A DNA stretch of 51,973 bases, taken from IMG/VR virus record IMGVR_UViG_3300024256_000012, positions 1 to 51,973 of that record; one strand, written 5' to 3'. Shown here in pieces: positions 21,947 through 38,991 of this stretch. A program made the translations under genes and the position numbers. The notes under the pieces were generated by a model. It was not told the origin of the DNA. It saw only the letters and a list, made by a program, of their open reading frames with translations, and did not search any database. How positions within the stretch are numbered: position 1 is the first letter of the stretch; every line of letters starts with the position of its first letter. The stretch comes from a virus.

Positions 21947-24900
21947 TTATTCAGCAACCTTTCCCTTCTTCAGTACCTTCAACTTGCTTATATCAATCTT
22001 GTTAAATCCAGGCACCTTCCTTCCCTGAAAGACTATCACCGACCCAACACCCGACTCTTCAAATATGAGCTTCTTGAACTTCCCAAATTTGTATCTATTA
22101 ATTCCAGCGAGTATCTGCCCTGTATCATCCTCCATCTGCATGATAAGAAACTCGTGTAAATCAGGTCGCTTGATCTTGGTCAAATCCTTCTGTGCGGTGA
22201 TACCAGCCTCAAATACATCTCGCAAATTCAGTCGGGTTATCTTCGCCAATATGATTACTTCTTCGGTGCGCTCTGTTACATCTTTGATTAGAGTCCACTT
22301 GCCCTCATATTTGTCGTACCAGTCTTGGAATCCTTCACCAATAGGATACAAGTCAGCCCACGGCAATAGGTCGGTGATAATGTCCATCCCCTTTGGGTTG
22401 CCAATCTCTTTGAACGTATCAATTATGGCTCCAGTAATCCCATCAAACAAGTCGGTCTGATTGATGTCACCCTTCGCTATTAATCCCTCAGGCAACTTAC
22501 CTAGCAAATGCAGGCTCTCTAACCCTCTTTTACCAAGAGCTTTCCTGAAGTCCTTGCTATTGCTCCATGGGCGTGTTGCGACAATTTTATCGGCTGCTTT
22601 CTCGCCAATTCCTTTCACGTTCTGAAAGCCACCATATATGATACCTTCTTTGAGGGTAAAATTCTGTTCGGACTTCTCCAAATCCAACGGCTCGAACTTC
22701 CCACCACGATCAACCCACTCTCGCAATAGCTTCTTGATAATGTCATCATCGTTCTCCTTGCGAATAGTGGAGATGTAAAACTCAGCTGGGTAGTGGGTTT
22801 TGAGATAGGCTGTCCAGTATGATAAAAGCCCATAGGAAACTGAGTGAGATTTATTGAATGCCCAAGAGCCGAATGTACAGACGTTCTCCCAAATGATTTG
22901 AGCTATCTCTTTGGTGACTCCATTCTTCCCAGCACCCTCAATGAACTTGCTTTCGTATGTCCGAAAATATTCAACACCCAAGCTCTTGCTCATAATTTTT
23001 CTCAGAGCAGTAGCATCCTCCCAGTTCATCCCACCTAGCTCTTTTACAATCGTGAGAACTTGCTCTTGATAGACTACAATTCCATAAGTCTCTCCAGCTA
23101 GAGTTTCGAGCATCGGGTGAATATATTGAACCTTCTTTTTTGTCGGTATGTCAAAGCCCATCTCGTGAGCTCTGTAATTGATATAACGAGTCGTGCCACC
23201 ACAGTGTAGTGACCCAGGTCGTGCCAGTGCGCTTATCTCTGCTATGTTAGTAAATTTGTCAGGCTGTACTTGTTTGTTGACCATCCTAACAGCGTCACCT
23301 TCAAATTGGAAAATTCCCCAGAGCTTATTTGTGCGAAAGGTCTCAAATGTTTTCGTATCTTCCAGAGGCAAATTATACAGCCAATCATAATCCTTCTCGA
23401 TCAGCAAAAGGATATTCTCTAGAATGGTAAGTTGCTTCAGTCCAAGCAGGTCAATCTTCAGCAAGCCGACTGCTTCAGAATCCTTCTTGTCCATACTGAT
23501 GATTCGTTCTCCTTTCGTGCCCCTAACAAGCCCACCTAGCTTGTCTATGGGCTGATCTGATACTACGAGCCCAGCGGCATGAATCCCGTGCTGTTTGATC
23601 TGTCCTTCGATCTTGGCTGCTTCCTTGAATAAAGGATATTGTTTCACAATCGCTTTGCTTCTCTCGAACTGGTCAAAGGTATCAGTCAAACAAAAGCTGG
23701 CACGAGCATCAGCTGAACTCCTTTCGACTATCAAATTGACAAGCTCTTGAGCTTCCCTGAATGGTAGGTCGTATGCCCTTCTTGTATCCCACAAAGCTAC
23801 CTTCGGTTTGAAGTATCCAATCGTGCCTAGCTGGCTTGTATACTCCTCCCCATATTTGTCAATCAAATACTCGATAACCATATGACGCTTTTCATCTGGG
23901 AAGTCTAGATCAATATCAGGTGGATCATTTCGAGTGATGTCAATAAATCTCTCGAAAATTAAGCCGTGAGGAATTGGATCAACTTCAGTTATCCTGAGGA
24001 CATAAGCGACTATGGAACCAGCTACACTTCCACGAGCTGGCCCAAGCAACATCCTCTTCTTAGCCCACACGCAAAGGTCTTGGATGACTAGGAAGTAGTC
24101 AATGTAATTTTTCTCGTTGATGAGCTTGACTTCCTTCGCAAGTCGTTTCTCGTACACTGGCCAGTCCTTGAGCTTTTTTAACCCTCTGAACTTTACTCCA
24201 GTGGTGATCTGATACAGGAAAAATTCCTCTTTGTTTTTCCATAGAGCATTCTTCTCCAGTGGGAAAGTTTTCTGCCCTGATATAACTCGCTTATCTGAAC
24301 ACTTGTCGTCAATCTCAAGGGTGTTCTCGAAAGGAGAGTGATCAGGGTAAACAAGGGCAGACCTTTCCTCAGCTTCAGCTCCATCGAAGAGATACAATTC
24401 AGGCATCAGTTTTAATCGGTTGGGGTCATCGAAGTTTGACTTGGTTCCTATGCATACAATCAAGTCCTCTGCTGTATGATCGTGGGGGCTGGGGAAGTGC
24501 GAGTCAGAAGTTGAGACTGGCTTGATATTATATTCATCTGCAAGCTCAAGTATCTGAGTCACCTCCCCAGCAAACTTTTCGATTGGGCTGACTTCTATAT
24601 AAAAGTCATCTTTGAATGCCTTCTTAAAACTCTTCAGATATTTGTCCCTGTATTGAGTTTTGCTAAGGTTATTAATTAAGACTCCAGCACCCATACATCC
24701 CGACAAAACGATCAACCCTTCGTTATGAGCCAGCAGAGTTTTGAAGTCGATTCTTGGCTTGTAATAGAATCCCTCAAAATTGCTAAAGGTTATCAGCTTG
24801 TGTAGGTTCTCTTGCCCAGTCTCATTCTTAGCCATAACTGTTATATGATAACGATGCCTGTCATGCCTATCCATAGCATCATCGACAATATAAAACTCAC

Positions 24901-25102
24901 AGCCGTAAATTATCTTGGTGCCGTTGTTTCGCTTCTTCGCTTCTCGCCAGAATGGAACATGAGCCCAGATATTGCCATGGTCAGTTATAGCTAGCGACTT
25001 GTGCCCAATCTCCTCTAGCCTATCAAGGTATTGAGCTGGCAATCCATACCCATCTAGGAAACTGTACCCAGTATGAGTATGGAGGTGTATGAAATCTAAC
25101 AT
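21947..25102 (-). CDS. dnaE: DNA polymerase III alpha subunit (DnaE type)
   Basis: A 1051-residue replicative polymerase of bacterial family C. It begins with a PHP domain (HLHTHTGYS at residues 6-14; ITDHGN near 39-44), whose metal-binding residues look intact and could give proofreading or pyrophosphatase activity. The palm has the catalytic PDIDLDFPDE (about residues 394-403). KIDLLGLKQLTIL, VYQEQVL and FNKSHSVSYGLLSYW mark the fingers. A C-terminal region ends in an OB-like section. It is slightly shorter than cellular DnaE (about 1160). It overlaps the methyltransferase-like gene by seven bases, at the 3' end of the replication operon. Very secure. Confidence 0.96.
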   Translation of the reverse strand: MLDFIHLHTHTGYSFLDGYGLPAQYLDRLEEIGHKSLAITDHGNIWAHVPFWREAKKRNNGTKIIYGCEFYIVDDAMDRHDRHRYHITVMAKNETGQENLHKLITFSNFEGFYYKPRIDFKTLLAHNEGLIVLSGCMGAGVLINNLSKTQYRDKYLKSFKKAFKDDFYIEVSPIEKFAGEVTQILELADEYNIKPVSTSDSHFPSPHDHTAEDLIVCIGTKSNFDDPNRLKLMPELYLFDGAEAEERSALVYPDHSPFENTLEIDDKCSDKRVISGQKTFPLEKNALWKNKEEFFLYQITTGVKFRGLKKLKDWPVYEKRLAKEVKLINEKNYIDYFLVIQDLCVWAKKRMLLGPARGSVAGSIVAYVLRITEVDPIPHGLIFERFIDITRNDPPDIDLDFPDEKRHMVIEYLIDKYGEEYTSQLGTIGYFKPKVALWDTRRAYDLPFREAQELVNLIVERSSADARASFCLTDTFDQFERSKAIVKQYPLFKEAAKIEGQIKQHGIHAAGLVVSDQPIDKLGGLVRGTKGERIISMDKKDSEAVGLLKIDLLGLKQLTILENILLLIEKDYDWLYNLPLEDTKTFETFRTNKLWGIFQFEGDAVRMVNKQVQPDKFTNIAEISALARPGSLHCGGTTRYINYRAHEMGFDIPTKKKVQYIHPMLETLAGETYGIVVYQEQVLTIVKELGGMNWEDATALRKIMSKSLGVEYFRTYESKFIEGAGKNGVTKEIAQIIWENVCTFGSWAFNKSHSVSYGLLSYWTAYLKTHYPAEFYISTIRKENDDDIIKKLLREWVDRGGKFEPLDLEKSEQNFTLKEGIIYGGFQNVKGIGEKAADKIVATRPWSNSKDFRKALGKRGLESLHLLGKLPEGLIAKGDINQTDLFDGITGAIIDTFKEIGNPKGMDIITDLLPWADLYPIGEGFQDWYDKYEGKWTLIKDVTERTEEVIILAKITRLNLRDVFEAGITAQKDLTKIKRPDLHEFLIMQMEDDTGQILAGINRYKFGKFKKLIFEESGVGSVIVFQGRKVPGFNKIDISKLKVLKKGKVAE

Positions 25103-25647
25103 ATGGGGTTGTTCCTTTTTACCAGCTGAATTAAAACTGCGAGATTGCGCTCAGCGACTCCGATAATGATGCTGATGTTTACCTTTAAGCCCCCAGTGTC
25201 ATGCTTCTTGTAATAATCATTCTCAAGTAGATTCTTAAAAGTGGTTTCAGTAAATGTATGTTTGTGGTCTAAATCTTGGTGCGCCATATTCGATTTGTAG
25301 TATGGAACTGTTATGTTAATAACTCCATCAGATTTTAAAACTCTAGACATATCAGCGATAAGTGGAATCACATTTTGGATATGCTCTAGGAAATGGTGGC
25401 AATTGATAACGTCTACAGAGTTGGCCTTGAAAGGAATAGGATTTGATTCAGCATCCCATGATGGCCAATCTAACACCCTGTTATTTTCTAAGACCTTCAT
25501 CATGCCAGCTCCCAGATTTAAGATAACAGCGTCATCACCGACATCCCACTCAGGCTTATAATAAACAGAATTGATATCACGATCCATCCCGACTTTGAAA
25601 AACTCTCGAAGAGTTTTGGGGAAAGCCCCAAAATATTTCTTTGTCAT
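25096..25647 (-). CDS. SAM-dependent methyltransferase-like protein (183 aa)
   Basis: A 183-residue Rossmann-type protein of the Methyltransf_11 kind: VILNLGAG (about 41-48) as motif I, NSVDVINCHHFLEHIQN as the motif IV region, and SRVLKSDGVINITVPYYK as the post-motif strand. The order is right for a class I methyltransferase, though shortened at the C-terminus. It is coupled to thyX (four-base overlap) and dnaE, so the substrate could be a nucleotide, DNA or a small molecule. No target-recognition domain is seen, so a restriction-type DNA methylase is unlikely. Confidence 0.75.
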   Translation of the reverse strand: MTKKYFGAFPKTLREFFKVGMDRDINSVYYKPEWDVGDDAVILNLGAGMMKVLENNRVLDWPSWDAESNPIPFKANSVDVINCHHFLEHIQNVIPLIADMSRVLKSDGVINITVPYYKSNMAHQDLDHKHTFTETTFKNLLENDYYKKHDTGGLKVNISIIIGVAERNLAVLIQLVKRNNPIC

Positions 25648-26462
25648 TTCTTATCTCCATCGGTGCTAAAGTGTTCAGACTTAAAGACTCGATCACCAGC
25701 CCACTCGAACTCGCATTGCTCTTCTGTCTCCTCAAATCCTTGGAACATACACTTGTGAGTTTTCTCGCAACTGATCTTTATGTACGGCTCCATCCAAGGC
25801 CATAGAATTAAAACTTCACTTGCCATTCGCTGCATTACTTCGACCATCTCCCACTGGAACATCGGGCAAGCTCGATAAGCGAAAGTGTCCAAGAAAACTT
25901 TGATTGGATATTCAGCCACAATATAAGTCTCTATGCCAACAGGAACAGCAAACCTTGCGTCTTGGTATGGGATGCCCAGTTCGCACAGCTTCTCGTATGT
26001 TTTACGAGCTTGAAACACAAGGTTATTAAAAATCTGATGAGCATCCCTATCGTTCCAGATTGTTTTAGGTTCTCGAACATTAAACTTGGCACCCATAAAA
26101 GTGTAGCGAGAAGATTGCTGGTGGAAGGCTGCTTTGCGAGTCCTTACCATCTGGTGAGTAAAAGCCCGACTGACTCCGCTTATCTCGAAGGTGAACACGC
26201 CAGCTTCCAATCCTGTCTGGAGTCCTCCTTTGAATAACTCTTCGCCAACCTCTGGTGGAATGTCTTCATTAATATCTCCACCCACAGTAGCTCCAACCAT
26301 CTTTGATAAAGCTCTTTTGAATCTCTTCTCATCTGGGTAGTCGATAAGCTTGACTTGGATACCATCGGTGCCAGCGTGAACTTCTCCTTTGTTTAAAGGA
26401 CTGATCGCATTCATGCCGTGCTCGTGAGAATTGAACGCAGTTTTCTTATTCTTGTTAAGCAT
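25644..26462 (-). CDS. thyX: Flavin-dependent thymidylate synthase (ThyX), divergent motif
   Basis: A 272-residue enzyme expected to make dTMP from dUMP with methylenetetrahydrofolate, FAD and NADPH. GVSRAFTHQMVRTRKAA is followed by FHQQSSRY: the ThyX signature RHRxxSxxxxSxRY is present as RTR...QQSSRY (about residues 107-120), with Thr for the His and Ala for the first Ser but the key Ser and final RY kept. DARFAVPVGIETYIV and a conserved R-x-C-P block (FAYRACPMFQWEMVEVM) complete the fold. A Cys/Glu-rich C-terminal tail extends past the usual end. It sits among other nucleotide-metabolism genes. Family secure; altered chemistry possible. Confidence 0.88.
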   Translation of the reverse strand: MLNKNKKTAFNSHEHGMNAISPLNKGEVHAGTDGIQVKLIDYPDEKRFKRALSKMVGATVGGDINEDIPPEVGEELFKGGLQTGLEAGVFTFEISGVSRAFTHQMVRTRKAAFHQQSSRYTFMGAKFNVREPKTIWNDRDAHQIFNNLVFQARKTYEKLCELGIPYQDARFAVPVGIETYIVAEYPIKVFLDTFAYRACPMFQWEMVEVMQRMASEVLILWPWMEPYIKISCEKTHKCMFQGFEETEEQCEFEWAGDRVFKSEHFSTDGDKK

Positions 26463-26805
26463 CTTGGCTTTCCTTTTCCATCTTCTCGATATTGAGAATT
26501 GTTAGTATTGAATAGTTTGCTAGGTCGATCAAGTTTTGTTTTACGTTCTCCAAATCCCTTTCTCTGGACTTGGGAGTTTTGCCTAGCATGAAATGATTAA
26601 GCTGGCGCACGTGACCTGATTTGAATAATCCTTTAACACGCAACCACTTCCTTTTGATATCATAATAGCTTCCAACCAGATCATCTTCCAAAAAGGAATT
26701 ACCATACTGGACATTCTTAACTGTAAAGACTCGAAGCATCTGCTGAGTTATCTCTTCAAATCTATTTTGTATTTCAATTTGGCTCATTCTATTCTCCATT
26801 GTCAT
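26455..26805 (-). CDS. DUF1599 / nucleotide-modification-associated protein
   Basis: A 116-residue helical protein (or 110 if started at MSQIEIQNR, 26787, which has GGAG upstream). KNVQYGNSF, then DIKRKWLRVKGLF, and a closing DLANYSILTILN helix match DUF1599, named nucleotide modification associated domain 1 in published comparative work. It overlaps thyX by eight bases and the MazG-like fusion by four. The molecular activity is not established; association with thymidylate or modified-nucleotide metabolism is from family context. Confidence 0.75.
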   Translation of the reverse strand: MTMENRMSQIEIQNRFEEITQQMLRVFTVKNVQYGNSFLEDDLVGSYYDIKRKWLRVKGLFKSGHVRQLNHFMLGKTPKSRERDLENVKQNLIDLANYSILTILNIEKMEKESQDA

Positions 26806-27719
26806 CTTATTTCATCCAGAGTTTTAATTCTGATTACATTCTTGCCCATATCACCTTGGTTGTAATCAGTGTCGATCAGATAACACTTTTTGCCAGCTTT
26901 GCTAATGTCATTAGCATAGTGTAGCATATCTTCAACCATAAACTCGATATTGGGGAACTGGCTTATGGCATCTTGATTTTTCTTCTCGCTGAAGATGATA
27001 GCGTCACGGCCATCCTCCCACAGATCATTTTCCCTCAACCAAAATAAAGTATCTGAAAAAATTCGGCTGTATTCTTTTACTGGCCTTGAGGTCAAATACA
27101 CTATCGAATATCCTGCGCTGTGCATGCTTTTGATAAAACTCCACGCACCTGAGCATAGCTCCATTGTACGCTTCTTGCCAGTCTCTCGATACTCGTGTTT
27201 GAGTTTCCTGATTGCTTTCCTTCCTAAGACTTTTTCATATGCTCTGAAGATGTCGTCTGTAAATGTTATCGGCTCCACCTGAGTCTCTTCGTGAATAAAC
27301 TTCATAAAGGAGTAAGGATAGTCAGCCAGCACCCCATCCAGATCACAAGCAATAATCTTTTCCCTATCTCGAAGCTTGAGAAGTTTTTCCTGAACCCAGC
27401 GTTGTTCCACCACAGCACTTTTATCAGCAAAAGCTTCCATAAACTCATCTGGTGCCCAGCCCCAGACCTGCCCTATGACGAGCCAGTATTTGAATATGTC
27501 AATCCACTCTTCTCGAATATTAGAAATGGTGAGCTGCTCCTTACTAGGCCGATGCGCTTTGTAGTTGATTTCTCGAAGCAACTCACCCAATTCTGCCATC
27601 AATTGTAAAACATATTCCTTAGTATATTTCTGTTTGGAATCTGTGTCATAAATCTCATCTGATATATTTGTCTGGAAGTCGGCTTGCCTATCCCAGATTT
27701 GCTGTAGTCTATCGCTCAT
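26802..27719 (-). CDS. MazG-like/dUTPase domain fused to HAD 5'-nucleotidase
   Basis: A 305-residue bifunctional protein. Residues 1-110 resemble all-alpha NTP pyrophosphatases of the dimeric-dUTPase/MazG superfamily, with helix pairs carrying ELGELLRE (43-50) and REEWIDIFKY (69-78), the usual acidic metal ligands. Residues about 120-305 are a HAD hydrolase: CDLDGVLADY with nucleophile Asp126 and Asp128, a STR-like YLTSRP motif near 219, and a final VEDMLHYANDI block, as in 5'(3')-deoxyribonucleotidases. Together it could convert dUTP to dUMP and trim deoxynucleotide pools. Start and stop overlap with both neighbours by four bases. Domain calls are firm; exact substrates are inferred. Confidence 0.82.
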   Translation of the reverse strand: MSDRLQQIWDRQADFQTNISDEIYDTDSKQKYTKEYVLQLMAELGELLREINYKAHRPSKEQLTISNIREEWIDIFKYWLVIGQVWGWAPDEFMEAFADKSAVVEQRWVQEKLLKLRDREKIIACDLDGVLADYPYSFMKFIHEETQVEPITFTDDIFRAYEKVLGRKAIRKLKHEYRETGKKRTMELCSGAWSFIKSMHSAGYSIVYLTSRPVKEYSRIFSDTLFWLRENDLWEDGRDAIIFSEKKNQDAISQFPNIEFMVEDMLHYANDISKAGKKCYLIDTDYNQGDMGKNVIRIKTLDEIR

Positions 27720-28651
27720 AGTTTTAATCCTTTCAATCTGCTCATTTCTTGCCAGCTCTGATCGAGTTTGTAACCCTTCTCCCAGTTAGCATATCGACCT
27801 ACCATATACATGCCGCTGTCTCTTAATAACTGTTTGGTGTTATCTAGATCAAGAAGAGTTTTATCAACTGGAAAAACTTTTCCTGGTGTTAGTTTTATTC
27901 CTTGGCTACCAAAGGCAGCAGGATTCATATATTCTCTCGTCATTAGACTACCAGCCAAAGTTGTCCTGTAATGCCCGACTTCTTTGTCATAGTTATAGAT
28001 AATGATCATATTGTTTTTACCAAGAGGAGAATCCAGCAAGCTCTGTCTTATGTAGATCGGCTTTGACCTGAAAGCTTCATATGGCATATTCCTTATCACC
28101 TCAGGAACTATAATTGGCCCACCATAGTCGGCTCGTGTTATAAGTTTTAAGAAGCTGGGCAGAGGCAGTGTGTTAATAATAGTTTTGGCATATATAGTCC
28201 CTTTGTCTGTATCAACTCGCTTGGCGTTGCTGCCCATATTCTGAATATAGATTTTGGTCACTCTTCTATCATAGTCGAAATGCCCAGCTGAAGCTAGCAT
28301 ATGATCAATGTTAAGTTTATAGCCAAATGCCATCTTCTCGTCAATCGAAACTCCAGCGACTTGCTCCCCATAAACCTTCTCTGAATACTGCTCTGTAAAA
28401 TCTTCATCCTGCCGTGGGCCATCGATCATCCACGCCACACTGATAGTCTCGTCAGTCACCAAAGGGTGGAGATGTCGGTGGACATAGAAGGCAGCCGTTG
28501 AGCTATACATTTTGCGGGTGGTACTAAACGAATTTGCCTCCACGTGCCCTATCCTATCGGCTGGAATTTTCATCACGTGTTTTAAGTAGGAGTGAGCCAA
28601 TAATCCCGATGGCCCAGCCCCAATAATTAAGTAATCACAAGTCAATTGCAT
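27716..28651 (-). CDS. FAD-dependent oxidoreductase-like protein (311 aa)
   Basis: A 311-residue protein with a classic dinucleotide-binding start (DYLIIGAGPSGLLA, GxGxxG at 11-16), a mid segment with IINTLPLPSF, and a C-terminal DSGMYMVGRYANWEKGY block that resembles the second FAD contact of the UDP-galactopyranose mutase and amine-oxidase superfamily. It is shorter than most of these. It lies between primase-helicase and the MazG-like fusion and overlaps the latter. Redox modification of a nucleotide, sugar or DNA base is possible. There is no direct evidence for a substrate. Confidence 0.7.
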   Translation of the reverse strand: MQLTCDYLIIGAGPSGLLAHSYLKHVMKIPADRIGHVEANSFSTTRKMYSSTAAFYVHRHLHPLVTDETISVAWMIDGPRQDEDFTEQYSEKVYGEQVAGVSIDEKMAFGYKLNIDHMLASAGHFDYDRRVTKIYIQNMGSNAKRVDTDKGTIYAKTIINTLPLPSFLKLITRADYGGPIIVPEVIRNMPYEAFRSKPIYIRQSLLDSPLGKNNMIIIYNYDKEVGHYRTTLAGSLMTREYMNPAAFGSQGIKLTPGKVFPVDKTLLDLDNTKQLLRDSGMYMVGRYANWEKGYKLDQSWQEMSRLKGLKL

Positions 28652-28671: not shown

Positions 28672-31602
28672 TTAGTCAAACATTTCTTGTTCAGTTTCGG
28701 GGTCAACTTGGAAAGCCGAATCATCCACGACAATCTGGCCATTTTTTCTCATATTGAGATACGTTATGAATGCCTCAGTTTTAACATAGAAGGAAGTACC
28801 AACTGTCTTCAAGGCATTATTGTTTCTTAAAACTCGCAGCACATTCTTAACAGCAGACCTTTCCCAGCCTGTTATGTCCACGAGCGAAGATAGATTCAAA
28901 CGATCATCCTCAAGGAGAAGAGGCACGAAGTCATTCTTGATAACCGCATCCACCGCAGATCGGTCTTTCAGTTTTGTTTTACTTAGCTCAACCTCAGACC
29001 ACTCTCCATATCTCATAGAGCTTTTGTTGTAAATCTTTTCCAGCCAGTTATAGAAGAAGTCAACGTGGCCAGTTTTAACAAGGAGGGTTTTGCCGTGGGT
29101 GTTGGTGCTGAAAAACATACCAGCTACAGCAGAAGCACCTCTCATTAGTTTTAATCTTTGATCAGAAGGTTCAACAATTGGTATGCCGTGATAATACTTA
29201 TCACCCATCTGCCTAGCATATTGTAAAACTTTCTTAATTGCTCCAGCCGTAAATTTCACCTCATCAGTTTTACGAGACCAGACCCACATAACAAGATCGT
29301 GACATAAGGCCTGAGTATATTTGAGCACCCTTTCCTCTTTTACTTTCACCCTGTTATAGACTTCTTTGTTCACCTCTTCGCTATGGGCTGTCAGGACAAA
29401 ATCGAATCGCCTGATGTCCTCTAGATTGCCGATCAAATCCCTGACCGCAATACAGCCATAAGGATATTGCATCATGTTCCTACTCGTGTGGCCAATCTTG
29501 CGTGGGTTACCAATCCAAACCTTTCGAGTTTGCGCCATAGTTTTCTCAGTCCTAATCTTAGTCAACTCAGCTATCCCTGATGACCTTACTCCAGAGAACA
29601 AAGCTATGTCTTCAACGCTCATTCCTGATATCTCGTCAATGATTAAAGCTCTGCGGTTATTAAGTGGGATTTTGCCCCAGTTGATATGCCATCGCTTCGC
29701 TGTCTGGCTTAGTCCTCCGATGAGCCCAGCAATGCTAGAGCTTTCACCAGTTACAAATTCTGCAACCCCATAGTGTTTAATCATCGCTTTGGCTAGCTCA
29801 GTTTTGCCACAGCCAGAATCTCCAATGATTAAACTCTCCATCCAACCACGCTCAACCTTCCCTTGAAACTTAACATTCAACGGACTGTGGAGAGTTATAT
29901 CAAATGTCATAGCGATGTCCATCCGATCATAGATGCCACTTATATGTTCGATGTCCTCATGCCTTTCGAGATAAGCCTTCATCATTTCTTCAGCACTACC
30001 ATCGCACTGGAAAATTTCCAAACGCTTTTCCATCTCCTCATTCATATCGAATTGGTCGATTGAATCAACAGTTTCTATGGCATCGAAAAAGAGCTGGGTG
30101 CTCTGCTGTGTTTTCGGGTTAGGAAGGGCAAGCCCTCTTAAAACATAGACTTGGTTGGCCTGTACTCCTAGCCCAGCGTGATACGCTACATTCTGAACAT
30201 ATTCATAATTCGCATCGGTGGTGAAGTCTATCTCTGGGATGAGTCTTAACTCTTCTATGTTTATATATGTTTTTGTATCTATCCTAAATCTGTCGCACCT
30301 ATTCGGGATGCCCAGCTGCTTCTTGATATTCCTAAACAAAGCATCATCTCGAATGTCGATAAGATTTAACAAACTGCCTCTGTCAACCTCCTCCTTCAAA
30401 AATATATCTTTATTGTTATCAGTCACCTGATAGAAGGGACAAAATGGGCATAGGTTCTCGCCACCCTTGGCATCGCATTTACAATTAACTTTATTTGGAA
30501 TTTCATAGGGTGGATAATCCTTGCCTGATACTAGAGCTTTGACTTCAATATTCATCAACGCATTCTTCGCATGGCTGGCGTCAGCAAGAGTGACCTTTTT
30601 ATATTCCTTGTTTCTCTCCTTCTTCCCATACTCCATTGTATCATAATATTCTTTGGCTGCTGTTAAAACTTCTCTGAAGTCCTCTATTGTTTTACCATAT
30701 GTTATTATAAAGTCTGTGAAGTCATCTCCTCCTTTCGGCTCTTCAATAAACTTCCCCAGCTCTGCTATGAATACAATCTCAGCTATCCCTACCAATTGCT
30801 TGGCGACTCGAATTGCTCCAGCTTCTCCAGCCTTATCTACATCATACAATATATAGACTTTTTTGTCCTTGAAATATTTATGAGGCCAGCCCTTGTTAAA
30901 ACTTCCAGCCCCACTCGTAACAGTCACGGCCTTCAGCCCCATCTGGTCGGCCAACATCGCATCCATCTCTCCTTCGACAATCAATATTTTCTTCGACTCT
31001 AGATTGTGAAGAGGAAACAAGCGCATGCGCCCATATTGGTATTCTGAATCATCGGTGTAATTGATTAATTTGAACTTGGGATTCTTCATCAGGAAAGCAT
31101 ATTGGCGTACATTCCTGCACTTGCCTTCGCTGTCGAATATTGGTATGGTGATTCTGTTCCTAAAATATCCAAGCTTGTGCTTCTTGATAGTCGCTAGAGT
31201 GATGCCACGCATCTCCTCCAGCTTGGATATTATCATCTTGTTATCGAGCAAAGCCTTGTGCCAACTTTCCCATATAGAATTGTCAACTGTTCCCTCAAGA
31301 GAATAGTCATCAGCATTAAGCTTTATATCAAGATGTTTACAGAGCCATTGAATGCGTTCTCGTTTCGTTTCCAGCCCCAGCTTTTTCTCAAGGAATGTAT
31401 AGACGTTTCCAGACCCGCATCCCGCATAACAATTGTATTGCCCTGTTTGAGAATTAAAACCAAAACTGGGGTCAGTATCTTCGTGTAAAGGACAATGTCC
31501 AGAAAACTGTCCATCTCCCAACGGCTTAATCTTTTCTACAAAATCTTCATAGAATCTCAGGTAGTCAATCTTCAATTCTATCTGTTCAATAATACTAGGC
31601 AT
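28672..31602 (-). CDS. Primase fused to an MCM-like AAA+ replicative helicase
   Basis: A 976-residue replication protein. The N-terminus is DnaG-type primase: a CHC2-like zinc finger (CPLHEDTDPSF, CYAGCGSGN, about residues 38-65) and a Toprim domain (ILIVEGEMDA near 208 and YDVDKAG near 249). A Cys-rich knuckle (NCKCDAKGG, CPFC, about 375-395) resembles the MCM N-terminal zinc site. The AAA+ motor has Walker A GDSGCGKTEL (about 592-601), Walker B ALIIDEIS (about 651-658) and a sensor-1-like IGNPRK (about 697), in the order and spacing of MCM rather than DnaB. A winged-helix (SAVKNVLRVLRNN) ends the protein. It leads the replication operon, directly after the three-box element. Only a weak ribosome site is visible. 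Confidence 0.85.
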   Translation of the reverse strand: MPSIIEQIELKIDYLRFYEDFVEKIKPLGDGQFSGHCPLHEDTDPSFGFNSQTGQYNCYAGCGSGNVYTFLEKKLGLETKRERIQWLCKHLDIKLNADDYSLEGTVDNSIWESWHKALLDNKMIISKLEEMRGITLATIKKHKLGYFRNRITIPIFDSEGKCRNVRQYAFLMKNPKFKLINYTDDSEYQYGRMRLFPLHNLESKKILIVEGEMDAMLADQMGLKAVTVTSGAGSFNKGWPHKYFKDKKVYILYDVDKAGEAGAIRVAKQLVGIAEIVFIAELGKFIEEPKGGDDFTDFIITYGKTIEDFREVLTAAKEYYDTMEYGKKERNKEYKKVTLADASHAKNALMNIEVKALVSGKDYPPYEIPNKVNCKCDAKGGENLCPFCPFYQVTDNNKDIFLKEEVDRGSLLNLIDIRDDALFRNIKKQLGIPNRCDRFRIDTKTYINIEELRLIPEIDFTTDANYEYVQNVAYHAGLGVQANQVYVLRGLALPNPKTQQSTQLFFDAIETVDSIDQFDMNEEMEKRLEIFQCDGSAEEMMKAYLERHEDIEHISGIYDRMDIAMTFDITLHSPLNVKFQGKVERGWMESLIIGDSGCGKTELAKAMIKHYGVAEFVTGESSSIAGLIGGLSQTAKRWHINWGKIPLNNRRALIIDEISGMSVEDIALFSGVRSSGIAELTKIRTEKTMAQTRKVWIGNPRKIGHTSRNMMQYPYGCIAVRDLIGNLEDIRRFDFVLTAHSEEVNKEVYNRVKVKEERVLKYTQALCHDLVMWVWSRKTDEVKFTAGAIKKVLQYARQMGDKYYHGIPIVEPSDQRLKLMRGASAVAGMFFSTNTHGKTLLVKTGHVDFFYNWLEKIYNKSSMRYGEWSEVELSKTKLKDRSAVDAVIKNDFVPLLLEDDRLNLSSLVDITGWERSAVKNVLRVLRNNNALKTVGTSFYVKTEAFITYLNMRKNGQIVVDDSAFQVDPETEQEMFD

Positions 31603-33773: not shown

Positions 33774-33996
33774 TTGCCTTCACCTCATATAACTCTATGG
33801 CATCTTTAATAACTGTTAAAACTTTCGGGTCAGAAAATATAATGCGCAGAACTTGCTTCAATAATCTGCCTTTGGTTTTATCAATAACATTCATAAAGAG
33901 CTTTGAGCCATTCTTTTCATAAGTGGTAACAAGCTCCACCTTGTACCATTTATTTTGGGCTGATATAACTCTAGCTGGCCTCACCTTACTTGACAT
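33766..33996 (-). CDS. Hypothetical protein (76 aa)
   Basis: A 76-residue protein, basic N-terminus with beta strands (WYKVELVTTYEKNG) and a helical C-terminus. Overlaps the SNF2-type helicase gene by 11 bases. Might act with the helicase; nothing specific is recognised. Confidence 0.5.
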   Translation of the reverse strand: MSSKVRPARVISAQNKWYKVELVTTYEKNGSKLFMNVIDKTKGRLLKQVLRIIFSDPKVLTVIKDAIELYEVKANE

Positions 33997-35692
33997 TGCT
34001 GTACTCCTCTTTAAAACTCGTCATCAGAGCGTTGATGCCTTTCTTGCCTTCGATAACACCAGCGATAATTTCATCAATAGTTTTCTTTGCTACTAAGATA
34101 TATTCATTCATGGGATTCTTTTGCCCTGATCTGTTAAACCTTTCGACACTCTGAGCATAATCCTCAAAACTGTAATTCATACTGTATCTGTAACTATAAC
34201 TAGCCACAGAGAGATTTAAACCCATCCCAGCAGACTTGGGGTGAGCTATGAACGCTTGAGCATCTCCTTCGATGAATTCACTCAGCGCAATCTCTCTGTT
34301 CGGCTTAGACACTCCACCATAAAACTGCACACACTTGACTCCAGCCTTCTCCAGAGCTTCGGTTATTATGCGAATATCTTCATGGTATACTGCCCACACT
34401 ATAAACTTTGCATTTGGCGGCAAATCCTTTATAGACTCGATGAGGAGTTTTAATTTTGGATTTGGTGTAAAATAAGTTTTGTTTGTACCTTCTGTATTCT
34501 GAATAAAGCCAGATGTGATTTGAGATAGCCGAAGGAGTTTTGTCAATACAATCGAAGCGTCATAAGCTTCTTCATCAATAAGGGTTACCATGTCGGCAGC
34601 CATCTCGTTGTAAGCTCGTTTCTGTTCCTTTGTTAGTTCTAACTCTAGCCACTGGGAAGCAAATGGTGGAAGGTCTTGGGTGTCCTTCTTCTTCCAGCTA
34701 ACAGAATAGACCGACTTGATTTGCTCTAGCCTATTTGCCGTTGCTGGCTTTGGGTTCCACTCGTATTCATTCCAATGGGACTTCTGAAAATATAACTCTC
34801 GAAAGGCATAGAAGGATTCACCCAGCATTCTAGGGTCAAGGAACTTCCACTGAGGGAAAAGCTCCAGCCAAGTGTTAGGAGTCGGGGTGCCAGTAAGGAT
34901 AGATTTGAACTCAGCTACTGTACTGAGTTTTAACATAGCTTTGGTTTGCTTGCTAGTTGGGTTTTTAATCCTTGAGGATTCATCAGCGATTATAAAGTCT
35001 GGATTCAGTTTTAATAACTGAGGCAAGAGTCGCCATGTTTTCTCATAGTTGATTATATAAATTCCATCCATGTCGGCCTGTAAAACTTTCCTAGCATAAT
35101 CGACTGACCGACCTAAAACATTTATGGTAAGTGGGTTGCCCTCTCCTAAGAATAGCCGAATGTCATTTGCCCAGACACGTTCCATAATTGATAATGGGCA
35201 AACAATTAAAACTCTTTTAACATCAGCATTCCAAATCCTATCCCATATCAATCCTATTTGTACTGCAGTTTTACCAGACCCAGGTTCACTAAAGTCTGCA
35301 GAGAGATTTGTTTGGCTCCAAAATGTAAAACTCTGGAGCTGGTGAGTCCAGAAGGGAAGTGCTAACAGATCACGATAATCCTCATCAGGATTGAGCAGAG
35401 CTTCATCCCGAAGTTTTAACAAATCGACATAGCCCTGTCGAAGCTCATCAAGTCCTTCTTTGGTCCCAGCCTCAATCTCCACCTCAGGGAAGACAGCCAC
35501 CACTTCATTAAACACGAGTTTTAATAATGGGAATGTCCAGTGTTTAGTTTTCTTGCTAAAATAGCTGCCTGTAATCGAGACAGCCCTTGTTCGATCTTCA
35601 TAAGGACACCATAGGCAGAGCTTGCCACCCTCTGCCCATAGTGTTGGTTTTGTTAACTTGTTATAATGTCTTAGCAACGATCTTGGCCTCAT
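33986..35692 (-). CDS. SNF2/SWI2-type helicase-like ATPase
   Basis: A 568-residue (from MRPRSLLRHY at 35692) superfamily 2 ATPase. SEPGSGKT is Walker A (about residues 134-141), IADESSRIKN the DEAD-like box (about 233-242), LTGTPTPN motif III (about 265-272), and QSVERFNRSGQ motif VI (about 514-524), all in SNF2 order. Such phage proteins translocate on double-stranded DNA and may remodel protein-DNA complexes, assist recombination or replication initiation. In-frame ATGs at 35707 and 35773 are alternatives; all overlap the gene upstream. Family secure, start uncertain. Confidence 0.88.
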   Translation of the reverse strand: MRPRSLLRHYNKLTKPTLWAEGGKLCLWCPYEDRTRAVSITGSYFSKKTKHWTFPLLKLVFNEVVAVFPEVEIEAGTKEGLDELRQGYVDLLKLRDEALLNPDEDYRDLLALPFWTHQLQSFTFWSQTNLSADFSEPGSGKTAVQIGLIWDRIWNADVKRVLIVCPLSIMERVWANDIRLFLGEGNPLTINVLGRSVDYARKVLQADMDGIYIINYEKTWRLLPQLLKLNPDFIIADESSRIKNPTSKQTKAMLKLSTVAEFKSILTGTPTPNTWLELFPQWKFLDPRMLGESFYAFRELYFQKSHWNEYEWNPKPATANRLEQIKSVYSVSWKKKDTQDLPPFASQWLELELTKEQKRAYNEMAADMVTLIDEEAYDASIVLTKLLRLSQITSGFIQNTEGTNKTYFTPNPKLKLLIESIKDLPPNAKFIVWAVYHEDIRIITEALEKAGVKCVQFYGGVSKPNREIALSEFIEGDAQAFIAHPKSAGMGLNLSVASYSYRYSMNYSFEDYAQSVERFNRSGQKNPMNEYILVAKKTIDEIIAGVIEGKKGINALMTSFKEEYSNVK

Positions 35693-36065
35693 CAGAGATG
35701 TACTCATCGACACTCTTGCCAAACTTGATAAGCCAGTTAATTGTATCAGGCCTAGTATGAGCAAAGGCTTCAATCAATCTAATCATGTGGTCATCGAAGT
35801 AATCTTTGAGGTCAATATTCTTCGTGCCTTCTTCGGTCTCTGTTTCCTCTTCCTCTTCATCAGTAGGAAACCATACACCCCATCCAAGGGAAATTGCTTC
35901 AGCATCTACTTTATCAAAGTCGCTCCAGTCGCTTGAAGCGAAGTCTTGTAGAAACTTTTCAGCGTAGTCAATAAGGTAGTCCAAACCCTCCTTGCTAATC
36001 TTGACATCAGCATCGGTGAATAAAGCTTTTAATTGGCGTTGATTGATAATGCGATTTTGTGGCAT
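35661..36065 (-). CDS. Small acidic protein with histone-fold-like N-terminus (134 aa)
   Basis: A 134-residue protein opening the early operon just after a terminator. Residues about 10-60 (ALFTDADVKISKEGLDYLID, helix, then a loop and KVDAEAISLG) follow the helix-loop-helix-loop pattern of a histone fold, including a possible paired-strand loop. The centre is an acidic run (about residues 69-80). The C-terminal helix-rich part has HTRPDTINWLIKFG. The histone-fold idea is by-eye only, and an ordinary helical early regulator is equally possible. AAAGGAAC precedes the start. Confidence 0.45.
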   Translation of the reverse strand: MPQNRIINQRQLKALFTDADVKISKEGLDYLIDYAEKFLQDFASSDWSDFDKVDAEAISLGWGVWFPTDEEEEETETEEGTKNIDLKDYFDDHMIRLIEAFAHTRPDTINWLIKFGKSVDEYISDEAKIVAKTL

Positions 36066-36258: not shown

Positions 36259-38991
36259 TTAATCAACTTCGATAGCATCAATGGTAATTTCAGATCGTTT
36301 AAAATCATAACTCAAATTAATGACTGCCCACTTCTTCGAGTTCATAACTGACTCTGTATACATGCCTTCGATTATAGGATGACGAATATTGATGACATCC
36401 CACTTCTGTAAATGTATAGCGTTGAAGAAAGTTTTGAACTTTGCACGCCAGTGTTTCTTATGAAGTCTATCGAGTAAATGATCAAGGTGAATAGTAGCAG
36501 TTGTTAAATCTCTCGTGTATGGATTCTTGTATGTCTTTGCTATAACTTCAGAGTGGATTGTAACATCTGAATCATTAACATCTTTCTGGAGTCCGAAAGC
36601 TCCATTGTCAACATACTCGACAGTAACATCTGTGACCAGAGTTTCCTTCTGCCCGACCATGCTAAATGAGTTTTGTATGATTGGATTCTCTAGATAACTC
36701 AAATCCCACAATGGATAATCTGAGGTGTCAGTTCCAGCAGCAGTATCAGTATCTGTCTGAAAGCCTATAAAGCGACCAACTTGGCGGCTTGTAGTTGACC
36801 AATCTAAAGAGGTGCCAGCAACAACAGTAACAGTAAACTTTCCTGTGGTGGAAGAGTAGGTGCAAGTTGACCCACCGATTATAACTGATAGGTTGGTTTG
36901 GATCATACTCGCTAGGGCTGATGCTGTATATGTTCCAGCTGTCAAAGTTGTTGATATGGAGCCTGGGCCTGGATGTGTAAAATATAGTTTATCATTCACG
37001 CTAGCTTCAATAACAAAAACTGTATTGGGATTGTAGTCAAATATATCTCTATTGCTGGGCTTGGTATCTCCAGAAGCAGAGAAGCCAACAGGCCCACCAA
37101 ACACCAGCATCCTAGTCAGCCCAGTAGCATCAATATCTGTTAGAGATTTAACAGTTGTTAAGAGTTTTGTCATTGGAGTGAACCATGGCTCTGGACTCCC
37201 ATGAATAGCTAGCGACAATATGGACGTTGATAAATCATTTGAGGCAATATTAAAACTATCCCTCAAGAGGTCAGTATCATCCGAAGGACCAACGCCAGCT
37301 TCGTTGCCCATCCCTAGCTCATCCCTGAATAAACTCTCGACAACGCCAGCAGCATTCTCGATAAGGGTGCCAGAGCCGTTGGAATCAATATGGGCTTCAG
37401 AGTATCCATCCACGACATCTCTATCATCTATCCATGTGTCATATTCTCTTCCTTTGATAGATGAATATAATGGCATATATTCATAGCTAGAAAATACACC
37501 TTTCTTCCATACTTCATAAATGGTCGCAACAGTTTCAGTAGCACCTGCTGATATGTCTCGATAGTGCGCAATAGTTATGCTTTGTTGCATGGCAGCATCA
37601 CCGCCAGCACCGACATTAGCAATGAAGATAGTTTTAATTCCAGCATTAGCATGAGCATTAAGTTCATTGCCATCTACAAGCAGGTGAAGTTGCCCAGCAG
37701 CTAGGCCAGCACCCCTTGTTAAACTAAACTTAATATACAACCCAACAGTGCCGATAGTTCTGTCATTTGTGTAGGTCGCATCGAAGTCTAAATCAACTCT
37801 AGCTTGAACAAGGGCTGACCAACCTGCACCGATAGTACTCACAGCAGGAGTAGCAGCGTCAGAGTCAACAGCATAAGTATCGTTTGTCCAAGTCGCAGCA
37901 CCGACATCTGCGTTGTTAGAAGTAGTCCCATCACCAAGTAAAATATCTCTGTAAGATCGGTTACTGTTAGCTTGATAACTAAACGTAGCACCATCAGTAT
38001 TATTATTTGTCATAGCTACTGGCGTGGATGTATTCTCGACAAATCTTCCAAGCGTTGAATCCCACGCCCAAACTAAGTCTGTAGTATTCAGAGTTGTTAA
38101 AACTTCGTGACCTGCCATCATCCACTTTTCCTGATTGGCTGAGTTCACCCCAAGCAGAATCATAGGCACCATATTATTATCTTTGTCACAAGTCATTGCG
38201 TCAGTCGTGCCAGTCGCAGCTCCATATAAGTTTCGGTGGTCGCCATAAATGATCGGCTTAATTTGTCCCAGAGCTTCGTCAGGAAGAGTAGCACCATCAG
38301 CCCCATCACTTCCCTCAAGGAGAGTACCAATTTGTTTATCGAGAAGTTGATTGGAGTCGGTTACATTAAACTGCATTGACTTATAGTTTAATGAAGGAGT
38401 GTCTTTGACAAGTCCTGAATAGAGTTGTAAACGCTCTGACAAGTTAATTGTAAGACCATCGTCAAAGTATTCAAATATATTAACTTCCATAAGAGCCATG
38501 TCTGGGTAAGTCGCTAGAACATCTGAAAATAATTCATTGTTCATAACTCCAAAACCTAAGTCTTGAGTTGGTGAGAATCCACCCAGCTCTTTGGCATATT
38601 GTTTTACTTTCGGTGGAAGAGATAAAATGCCCTGATAAGGTCGGTCAATCTCCCAGACTTGTCCAGACCCATTAACAAAAGTCGCACTGGCGCAATTCAC
38701 CCTTGTAGGTGAAGCGATAGCAGTTATGGGATATACACCAGCATTTGCTCCGCCAGTTATAGTTAAAACATCACCGATTAAAACTTGAGTTGTATCCATA
38801 GTAGCAGACTCGAAGCGTGTTGGCTTCGCTACATCGGTGTCTCCATCAGCTTCAGCATCAATGCGAACATCGAAGGAACTATTGGCTGAGAAGTTTTGTC
38901 CAATGCCTGCTATCTCAATTCCCATCCGTGGAAAATATCCTTTGAGATTGCTTTGTTTTAAAATGTGGGCATCTATTGAGGGCAAAGACAT
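36259..38991 (-). CDS. Large tail-tip/baseplate hub-type protein (910 aa)
   Basis: A 910-residue protein following the tape measure and a small distal tail protein, the position of tail-tip or hub proteins in siphophages. It is Asp/Thr/Gly/Ser-rich and mostly beta. Residues about 657-752 form a module, with AGTYTASALASMIQTNL and STTGKFTVTV, that recurs in the connector protein at 46431-47375. The C-terminal part (DLTTATIHLDHLLDRLHKKHW onwards) is more helical. No peptidase or lysozyme motif is seen. Ends before the operon terminator. Confidence 0.7.
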   Translation of the reverse strand: MSLPSIDAHILKQSNLKGYFPRMGIEIAGIGQNFSANSSFDVRIDAEADGDTDVAKPTRFESATMDTTQVLIGDVLTITGGANAGVYPITAIASPTRVNCASATFVNGSGQVWEIDRPYQGILSLPPKVKQYAKELGGFSPTQDLGFGVMNNELFSDVLATYPDMALMEVNIFEYFDDGLTINLSERLQLYSGLVKDTPSLNYKSMQFNVTDSNQLLDKQIGTLLEGSDGADGATLPDEALGQIKPIIYGDHRNLYGAATGTTDAMTCDKDNNMVPMILLGVNSANQEKWMMAGHEVLTTLNTTDLVWAWDSTLGRFVENTSTPVAMTNNNTDGATFSYQANSNRSYRDILLGDGTTSNNADVGAATWTNDTYAVDSDAATPAVSTIGAGWSALVQARVDLDFDATYTNDRTIGTVGLYIKFSLTRGAGLAAGQLHLLVDGNELNAHANAGIKTIFIANVGAGGDAAMQQSITIAHYRDISAGATETVATIYEVWKKGVFSSYEYMPLYSSIKGREYDTWIDDRDVVDGYSEAHIDSNGSGTLIENAAGVVESLFRDELGMGNEAGVGPSDDTDLLRDSFNIASNDLSTSILSLAIHGSPEPWFTPMTKLLTTVKSLTDIDATGLTRMLVFGGPVGFSASGDTKPSNRDIFDYNPNTVFVIEASVNDKLYFTHPGPGSISTTLTAGTYTASALASMIQTNLSVIIGGSTCTYSSTTGKFTVTVVAGTSLDWSTTSRQVGRFIGFQTDTDTAAGTDTSDYPLWDLSYLENPIIQNSFSMVGQKETLVTDVTVEYVDNGAFGLQKDVNDSDVTIHSEVIAKTYKNPYTRDLTTATIHLDHLLDRLHKKHWRAKFKTFFNAIHLQKWDVINIRHPIIEGMYTESVMNSKKWAVINLSYDFKRSEITIDAIEVD

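What the first reader, a model, noticed from the sequence alone, without database searches (positions are those of the whole stretch)
28672..31602. Primase joined to an MCM-like rather than DnaB-like helicase
The AAA+ part has Walker A GDSGCGKTEL, Walker B ALIIDEIS, a sensor-like GNPR, a preceding Cys knuckle and a terminal winged helix, the order seen in archaeal/eukaryotic MCM. The N-terminus is bacterial DnaG-like. Established precedent: a Bacillus cereus prophage element encodes an MCM with a primase-like domain. Here it occurs with a DnaE polymerase and no DnaB, so it is probably the replicative helicase of a self-contained bacterial-virus replisome.
Basis: partly seen in the sequence, partly recalled or inferred. 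Interest (0 to 1): 0.62.

Follow-up and report, generated by a model that had tools for sequence, protein, structure and literature searches.

The report
Phage primase fused to MCM helicase
This tailed-phage gene joins a bacterial-type primase to the ring helicase that archaea and eukaryotes (not bacteria) use to copy DNA; it belongs to a sizeable, so far poorly named phage family in which that helicase appears to stand in for the bacterial one, DnaB.

Summary
ORF 28672-31602 (-), 976 aa, has a DnaG-type primase (Zn ribbon, RNA-polymerase core, TOPRIM; aa 1-330) followed by an MCM module (N-tier OB/Zn domain 334-511, AAA+ 520-873, inferred C-terminal winged helix). A confident AlphaFold model of aa 334-976 (pLDDT 92.8) matches only MCM among its 50 best PDB hits (Z 30.3 to archaeal MCM), and a family profile recovers only MCMs from PDB sequences. 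Key motor residues are invariant across 80 relatives.

It is not unique: 47 phage GenBank records carry full-length relatives and more than 100 IMG/VR contigs encode relatives, labelled 'DNA primase/helicase' or 'unknown function'. DnaB is absent from the window and all 38 related records, but present in 10 of 10 phages with MCM-free DnaG-type primases. The same MCM module also occurs behind an archaeo-eukaryotic primase (BcMCM-like layout) and alone, so the primase half is exchangeable.

Best reading: the phage's fork helicase-primase. Since MCM tracks 3'-5' on the leading strand, the primase should prime the excluded strand, like Pol alpha-primase on CMG and unlike T7 gp4 (inference). The 'self-contained DnaE replisome' is not supported: the nearest relative uses PolA. 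New variant of a known kind.

The parts
28672..31602 (-). 976-aa TOPRIM primase-MCM helicase fusion
31312..31602 (-). DnaG-type zinc ribbon (aa 1-97), C37 H40 C58 C62
   Evidence: Pfam PF01807 1.9e-10; model aa 1-101 vs 1d0q Z 13.7
30613..31296 (-). DnaG RNA-polymerase core with TOPRIM (aa 103-330); acidic residues E210, E212, D254, D256, D294
   Evidence: AF2 pLDDT 92.1; Foldseek/VIA to DnaG 2au3, 5guj, 4edg, T7 gp4, Twinkle; conservation
30070..30603 (-). MCM N-tier OB/Zn domain (aa 334-511) without the N-terminal helical subdomain A
   Evidence: model residues 1-177 align to archaeal MCM from residue 104 on; secondary structure; subdomain limits from own knowledge
30295..30477 (-). Cys residues of the N-tier (C376, C385, C388, C436)
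   Evidence: conserved 74, 70, 75 and 65 of 80; zinc binding inferred
28984..30045 (-). MCM AAA+ motor (aa 520-873)
29794..29823 (-). Walker A GDSGCGKTEL (594-603)
   Evidence: K600 80/80
29674..29727 (-). helix-2-insert beta hairpin (aa 626-643; strands 629-634 and 637-642)
   Evidence: secondary structure; W638, W642, G643 conserved
29626..29649 (-). Walker B ALIIDEIS (652-659)
   Evidence: E657 80/80
29536..29574 (-). pre-sensor-1 beta hairpin (aa 677-689), K682 near the tip
   Evidence: K/R682 in 80/80
29500..29511 (-). sensor 1 GNPR (698-701)
   Evidence: N699 80/80
29398..29421 (-). arginine-finger region EDIRRFDF (728-735), equivalent to MCM SRFD
   Evidence: E728, D729, R732 80/80
28675..28962 (-). 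probable C-terminal winged helix (aa 881-976)
   Evidence: helices and beta hairpin in the model; few structural matches reach it: inferred
21947..25102 (-). DnaE-type DNA polymerase III alpha, the probable polymerase partner
33986..35773 (-). SNF2-like SF2 helicase; same side of the primase-MCM gene in Wollypog and Krampusvirus phages
25644..26462 (-). ThyX thymidylate synthase of the same replication/nucleotide cluster

Best explanation
The protein is the phage's own fork helicase and primase in one chain. Shown: aa 1-330 is a complete DnaG-type primase core (Zn ribbon, RNA-polymerase subdomain, TOPRIM) with the catalytic acids in place; aa 334-873 is an MCM N-tier plus AAA+ motor; DnaB is missing from the records of these phages. 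Inferred: six chains form an MCM ring that encircles the leading-strand template and moves 3'-5' with the N-tier ahead; the primases hang on the N-tier at the place of the lost MCM subdomain A, beside the exit of the excluded lagging strand, and lay RNA primers there; DnaE (here) or PolA (most relatives) extends them. The module thus replaces the DnaB + DnaG pair, with opposite helicase polarity.
For: MCM identity: Pfam above cut-off; the family profile hits only MCMs in PDB sequences, best 2.4e-12; AF2 model pLDDT 92.8 with all 50 top PDB matches MCM, VIA Z 30.3 over 457 residues including the N-tier. Primase identity: Foldseek 8e-18 to DnaG 2au3, Z 20.3. Active residues conserved in 72-80 sequences. 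Functional replacement: DnaB_C in 0 of 38 related records and 0 in the window against 10 of 10 control phages with MCM-free DnaG-type primase (Fisher p 1.2e-10, records not independent). Conserved replication cluster with polymerase, SNF2, RecA, RecB, ThyX in cultured phages. Exactly one replicative polymerase type, DnaE or PolA, in 36 of 38 records, never both. Architecture precedent: BcMCM (AEP-MCM), measured 3'-5' helicase with primase/polymerase activity (PMC4538821). Geometry precedent: Pol alpha-primase on the CMG leading edge above the lagging-strand exit (PMC10501992).
Against: No biochemistry exists here; polarity, hexamer formation and the strand primed are inferred. About half of the family has Gly at the first TOPRIM glutamate (E210; 31 of 72), though E212 stays, so primase activity may vary (this protein keeps both). 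Records may be fragments, so absence of DnaB is not proof per genome, and the controls were not matched for size or host. MCM modules without any recognisable primase exist (L078, L081).
Confidence: 0.8

Rival explanations
1. The MCM half is an initiator, loader or recombination/restart helicase that opens the phage origin, and host DnaB is recruited for fork progression.
For: DnaB is always available in the host; no DnaB loader can be excluded among unknown ORFs; BcMCM has been suggested to act in special situations such as re-initiation (PMC4538821).
Against: Phages with ordinary DnaG-type primases carry DnaB in 10 of 10 cases while the 39 records with this MCM module carry none, as expected if the MCM itself is the fork helicase. 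Host DnaB at the fork would leave the primase tethered to the wrong ring.
Confidence: 0.13
2. The primase half is degenerate or has another TOPRIM activity (nuclease or regulatory), and priming is done by the host DnaG or RNA polymerase.
For: Gly at the first TOPRIM glutamate in 31 of 72 relatives; stand-alone MCM relatives without recognisable primase.
Against: In the window protein all DnaG residues are present; D254 and D294 72/72, E212 71/72, Zn ligands kept; the whole DnaG core fold, not only the TOPRIM, is kept.
Confidence: 0.12
3. The motor belongs to another AAA+ clade with a helix-2 insert (Mg-chelatase/MoxR/McrB-like) and only resembles MCM.
For: One very divergent relative (L093) scores Mg_chelatase above MCM in Pfam; the Pfam match of the window covers only 113 of 224 positions.
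Against: Profile and fold searches return MCM only among the listed best hits, and the fold match includes the N-tier OB domain that those clades lack; EDxRRFD arginine finger and both hairpins present.
Confidence: 0.02

Closest known systems
BcMCM of a Bacillus cereus prophage (McGeoch and Bell 2005; Samuels 2009; Sanchez-Berrondo 2012) and AEP-MCM proteins such as the one of Bacillus phage vB_BboS-125
   Same: One chain, primase at the N-terminus, MCM N-tier plus AAA+ behind it, in a bacterial mobile element; the MCM halves of L088-L092 and L095 are homologous to this one (26-30% identity).
   Different: Their primase is archaeo-eukaryotic (PriS/PriL-like), here it is the unrelated bacterial DnaG/TOPRIM type. 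BcMCM's own sequence was not held, so it was compared by published description only.
T7 gp4 / Twinkle (TOPRIM primase-SF4 helicase)
   Same: TOPRIM primase fused N-terminally to a replicative ring helicase; the primase half matches T7 gp4 and Twinkle folds (Z 18).
   Different: Motor is MCM-type AAA+ rather than RecA-fold SF4; expected opposite polarity and therefore the opposite strand inside the ring (inferred).
Archaeal MCM and eukaryotic MCM2-7
   Same: N-tier OB/Zn domain, helix-2 insert, pre-sensor-1 hairpin, arginine finger, probable winged helix.
   Different: Only about 15% identity; archaeal plasmid MCMs on a long separate branch in the tree; N-terminal subdomain A replaced by a primase.
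Krampusvirus and Wollypogvirus 'DNA primase/helicase' (Microbacterium cluster EF, Arthrobacter phage Wollypog); PHROG 18685
   Same: Full-length homologues, about 30-32% identity, in a similar replication cluster.
   Different: Nothing essential; in the sources consulted they are annotated without mention of MCM (PHROG: unknown function).
SCCmec Cch/Cch2 helicases
   Same: Cch is an MCM-like helicase of a bacterial mobile element, and Cch2 was measured as a 3'-to-5' helicase (PMC7581432).
   Different: No fused TOPRIM primase (from the paper); not compared by sequence here.

Membership tests
MCM helicase (AAA+) | Walker A, Walker B, sensor 1 Asn, arginine finger in an SRF-like motif | tested here: met
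   K600, E657, N699, R732 80/80; Pfam MCM above cut-off
MCM helicase (AAA+) | helix-2 insert and pre-sensor-1 beta hairpin | tested here: met
   two hairpins at aa 629-642 and 677-689 in the model, inside the stretch aligned with MCM (model 1-540)
MCM helicase (AAA+) | N-tier OB fold with zinc-binding insertion | tested here: met
   model residues 1-177 lie in the part aligned with MCM N-tiers; Cys 376/385/388/436 conserved; metal binding itself not tested
MCM helicase (AAA+) | N-terminal helical subdomain A | tested here: not met
   alignment to archaeal MCM starts at its residue 104; a primase takes the place. A peripheral subdomain, not the defining core (own knowledge)
MCM helicase (AAA+) | C-terminal winged helix | tested here: inconclusive
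   helix and beta-hairpin pattern at aa 881-976; matched by few chains
MCM helicase (AAA+) | hexameric ring, 3'-5' ssDNA translocation | not testable with these tools
   needs biochemistry
DnaG/TOPRIM primase | zinc ribbon, RNA-polymerase core and TOPRIM with catalytic acids | tested here: met
   (NCBIfam dnaG 4.2e-23, below its equivalog cut-off)
DnaG/TOPRIM primase | C-terminal DnaB-binding domain of cellular DnaG | tested here: not met
   the primase core runs directly into the MCM N-tier at about aa 334
BcMCM-type AEP-MCM | archaeo-eukaryotic primase domain (PF01896) at the N-terminus | tested here: not met
   absent from the window protein, present in L088, L089, L091, L092 and L095
T7 gp4 / SF4 primase-helicase | RecA-fold DnaB_C helicase domain | tested here: not met
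   no PF03796 in the window; motor is MCM

The most novel reading that the evidence does not exclude
A widespread lineage of tailed bacteriophages replicates with a bacterial TOPRIM primase carried on the front of a 3'-5' MCM ring, so that it primes the excluded strand: a covalent, minimal counterpart of Pol alpha-primase on CMG, assembled from a bacterial primase. Within this lineage the primase half was exchanged (TOPRIM, none, or archaeo-eukaryotic) on one MCM chassis, and AEP-MCM proteins of BcMCM type would descend from inside it.
Probability: 0.4. Interest if true: 0.72.

Novelty: new variant of a known kind. Interest (0 to 1): 0.52.

Why it matters
The well-studied TOPRIM primases work with 5'-3' SF4/DnaB helicases that carry the lagging strand through the ring (own knowledge). 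Here the same primase type is welded to a motor of the other superfamily and, expectedly, the other polarity. That makes a basic question testable in one small protein: must primase and helicase track the same strand? The family also suggests a function for PHROG 18685 and for dozens of 'DNA primase' entries in cultured phages of laboratory hosts, and indicates that MCM is a regular DnaB substitute in bacterial viruses rather than a rare prophage curiosity.

Tried and rejected
DnaB/SF4 motor: not found. Other AAA+ clades: only MCM among the best hits by profile and fold; absence of others from those lists is not a proof. DnaE as obligatory partner: rejected, DnaE in 8 and PolA in 28 of 38 records, at least two changes on the tree. 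Self-contained replisome: no clamp, loader, SSB or ligase recognised in the ORFs scanned, which does not prove absence. BcMCM record NC_004820 is not held; a search of 399 class-Bacilli genomes found only the known member (only three candidates per genome scored). Recent transfer from archaea: archaeal plasmid MCMs sit on a very long branch; nothing supports it. Literature: no paper found in the held library describes a TOPRIM-MCM fusion, but Kazlauskas 2016 (10.1093/nar/gkw322) and Samuels 2009 are not held, so priority of description cannot be settled. Nucleotide-level match of the window's replication region to known phages: none. No tRNA genes in the window, so no host hint from them.

Full report
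Observation. Pfam assigns, above curated cut-offs, a DnaG zinc ribbon (aa 4-97), TOPRIM (205-273) and MCM (557-666). PHROGs give phrog_18685, 'unknown function', for aa 328-867 at 7e-72 and DNA primase families for the N-half. The window is an IMG/VR virus record with tailed-phage structural genes such as portal, major head protein, tail tube and minor tail proteins.

What the motor is. An alignment of 73 relatives of aa 334-976 gave an AlphaFold2 model with mean pLDDT 92.8 and pTM 0.89. Its 50 best Foldseek matches in the PDB are all archaeal or eukaryotic MCM (best E 1.8e-24). VIA-align gives Z 30.3 (rmsd 5.8, 457 residues) to archaeal MCM 6mii, with model residues 1-540 matched to MCM residues 104-607. 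A profile of the family against PDB sequences returns 61 matches; the 60 listed are all MCM (best 2.4e-12). The model shows the helix-2 insert hairpin (aa 629-642) and the pre-sensor-1 hairpin (677-689) with a Lys or Arg at 682 in all 80 sequences; Walker A Lys, Walker B Glu, sensor-1 Asn, arginine-finger Arg and a sensor-2-region Lys are invariant. The stated refutation (SF3, DnaB or another AAA+ clade) therefore did not occur.

What the primase is. A model of aa 1-345 (pLDDT 92.1) matches the Aquifex DnaG zinc plus RNA-polymerase domains (E 8e-18, Z 20.3), other DnaG cores, T7 gp4 and Twinkle. D254 and D294 are conserved in 72 of 72, E212 in 71, D256 in 69; the first TOPRIM glutamate (E210 here) is Gly in 31 of 72 relatives. 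The core runs directly into the MCM N-tier, without the DnaB-binding tail of cellular DnaG and without MCM subdomain A (domain limits of the reference proteins from own knowledge).

Family and spread. In 50,697 phage records, 47 carry a place covering at least 80% of the protein; those listed are Microbacterium Krampusvirus, Arthrobacter phage Wollypog and a Manatee Spring virus (28-32% identity). B. subtilis phage BSP7 and a Paenibacillus larvae plasmid (a matching protein occurs in P. larvae phage API480) have the same domain order. A pattern scan of IMG/VR gave 118 related stretches, 80 kept as loci; bacterial genomes gave 9 loci. The gene sits with SNF2 helicase, RecB, RecA, ThyX and polymerase genes in the actinophages, much as in the window for SNF2, ThyX and polymerase. 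The Microbacterium genome paper names it only 'DNA Primase' (PMC7302621).

Interchangeable primases. Proteins of Paenibacillus, Brevibacillus and Lachnospiraceae contigs and Bacillus phage vB_BboS-125 have the homologous MCM half behind an archaeo-eukaryotic primase. L078 and L081 encode the MCM half alone, with no DnaG zinc ribbon or PriS domain detected in the record. In a maximum-likelihood tree of 38 MCM modules the AEP fusions form one clade (100/100), joined with the stand-alone ones (95/98); TOPRIM fusions form one side of a branch in 0 of 200 bootstrap trees when archaeal MCMs are included. With so distant an outgroup the root, and so the direction of exchange, is uncertain.

Replacement of DnaB. 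DnaB_C is absent from the window and from 38 related records, including complete cultured genomes; 10 of 10 phages chosen because they carry an MCM-free DnaG-type primase have it. Fisher's exact p is 1.2e-10, a rough figure because records are related, some are fragments, and controls were unmatched. Of the 38, 28 encode PolA and 8 DnaE, never both.

Mechanism. Shown: domain composition, residue conservation, absence of DnaB, cluster context. From the literature: BcMCM is a 3'-5' helicase with primase/polymerase activity (PMC4538821); T7 gp4 encircles the lagging strand (PMC12593628); Pol alpha-primase sits on the leading edge of CMG above the exit of lagging-strand ssDNA, between MCM zinc fingers (PMC10501992). 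Inferred: this ring encircles the leading strand, N-tier forward, and carries up to six primases on the N-tier beside the excluded strand. A TOPRIM primase would then prime the strand outside the ring, unlike in T7 and E. coli.

Known or new. MCM helicases in bacterial mobile elements, and their fusion to AEP primases, are known (PMC5862659). A TOPRIM-MCM fusion was not found in the held library, but the most relevant survey (Kazlauskas 2016) is not held. I therefore rate it a new variant of a known kind, widespread rather than unique.

Noticed in passing
L078:9977-11845, L081:3886-5718: Phage contigs with the MCM half alone (610-622 aa) and no recognisable DnaG zinc ribbon or PriS domain in the record; L078's record encodes PolA. 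Who primes is unknown.
   Followed up: partly
window 28672-31602, aa 210: The first TOPRIM glutamate (E here) is Gly in 31 of 72 relatives (GGExK-like instead of EGExD) while the second Glu is kept: a possible shift of the catalytic residue in half the family.
   Followed up: partly
window 21947-25102 against L003: DNA polymerase exchange: DnaE in the window, PolA in the nearest relative although the primase-MCM proteins are 64% identical.
   Followed up: partly
window 26802-27719: One ORF joins a dUTPase_2/MazG-like domain to an NT5C/HAD nucleotidase-like domain.
   Followed up: no
window 27716-28651: Protein with an N-terminal FAD-binding-like GxGxxG motif directly downstream of the fusion; genes annotated oxidoreductase lie just downstream in Wollypog and Krampusvirus too. 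Role in the cluster unknown.
   Followed up: no
L005:19980-22826: The Manatee Spring homologue is annotated 'DNA directed DNA polymerase' in GenBank (UOF80042.1), which the domains do not support.
   Followed up: yes
window 36259-38991: 910-aa ORF without any Pfam or PHROG match at the thresholds used.
   Followed up: no
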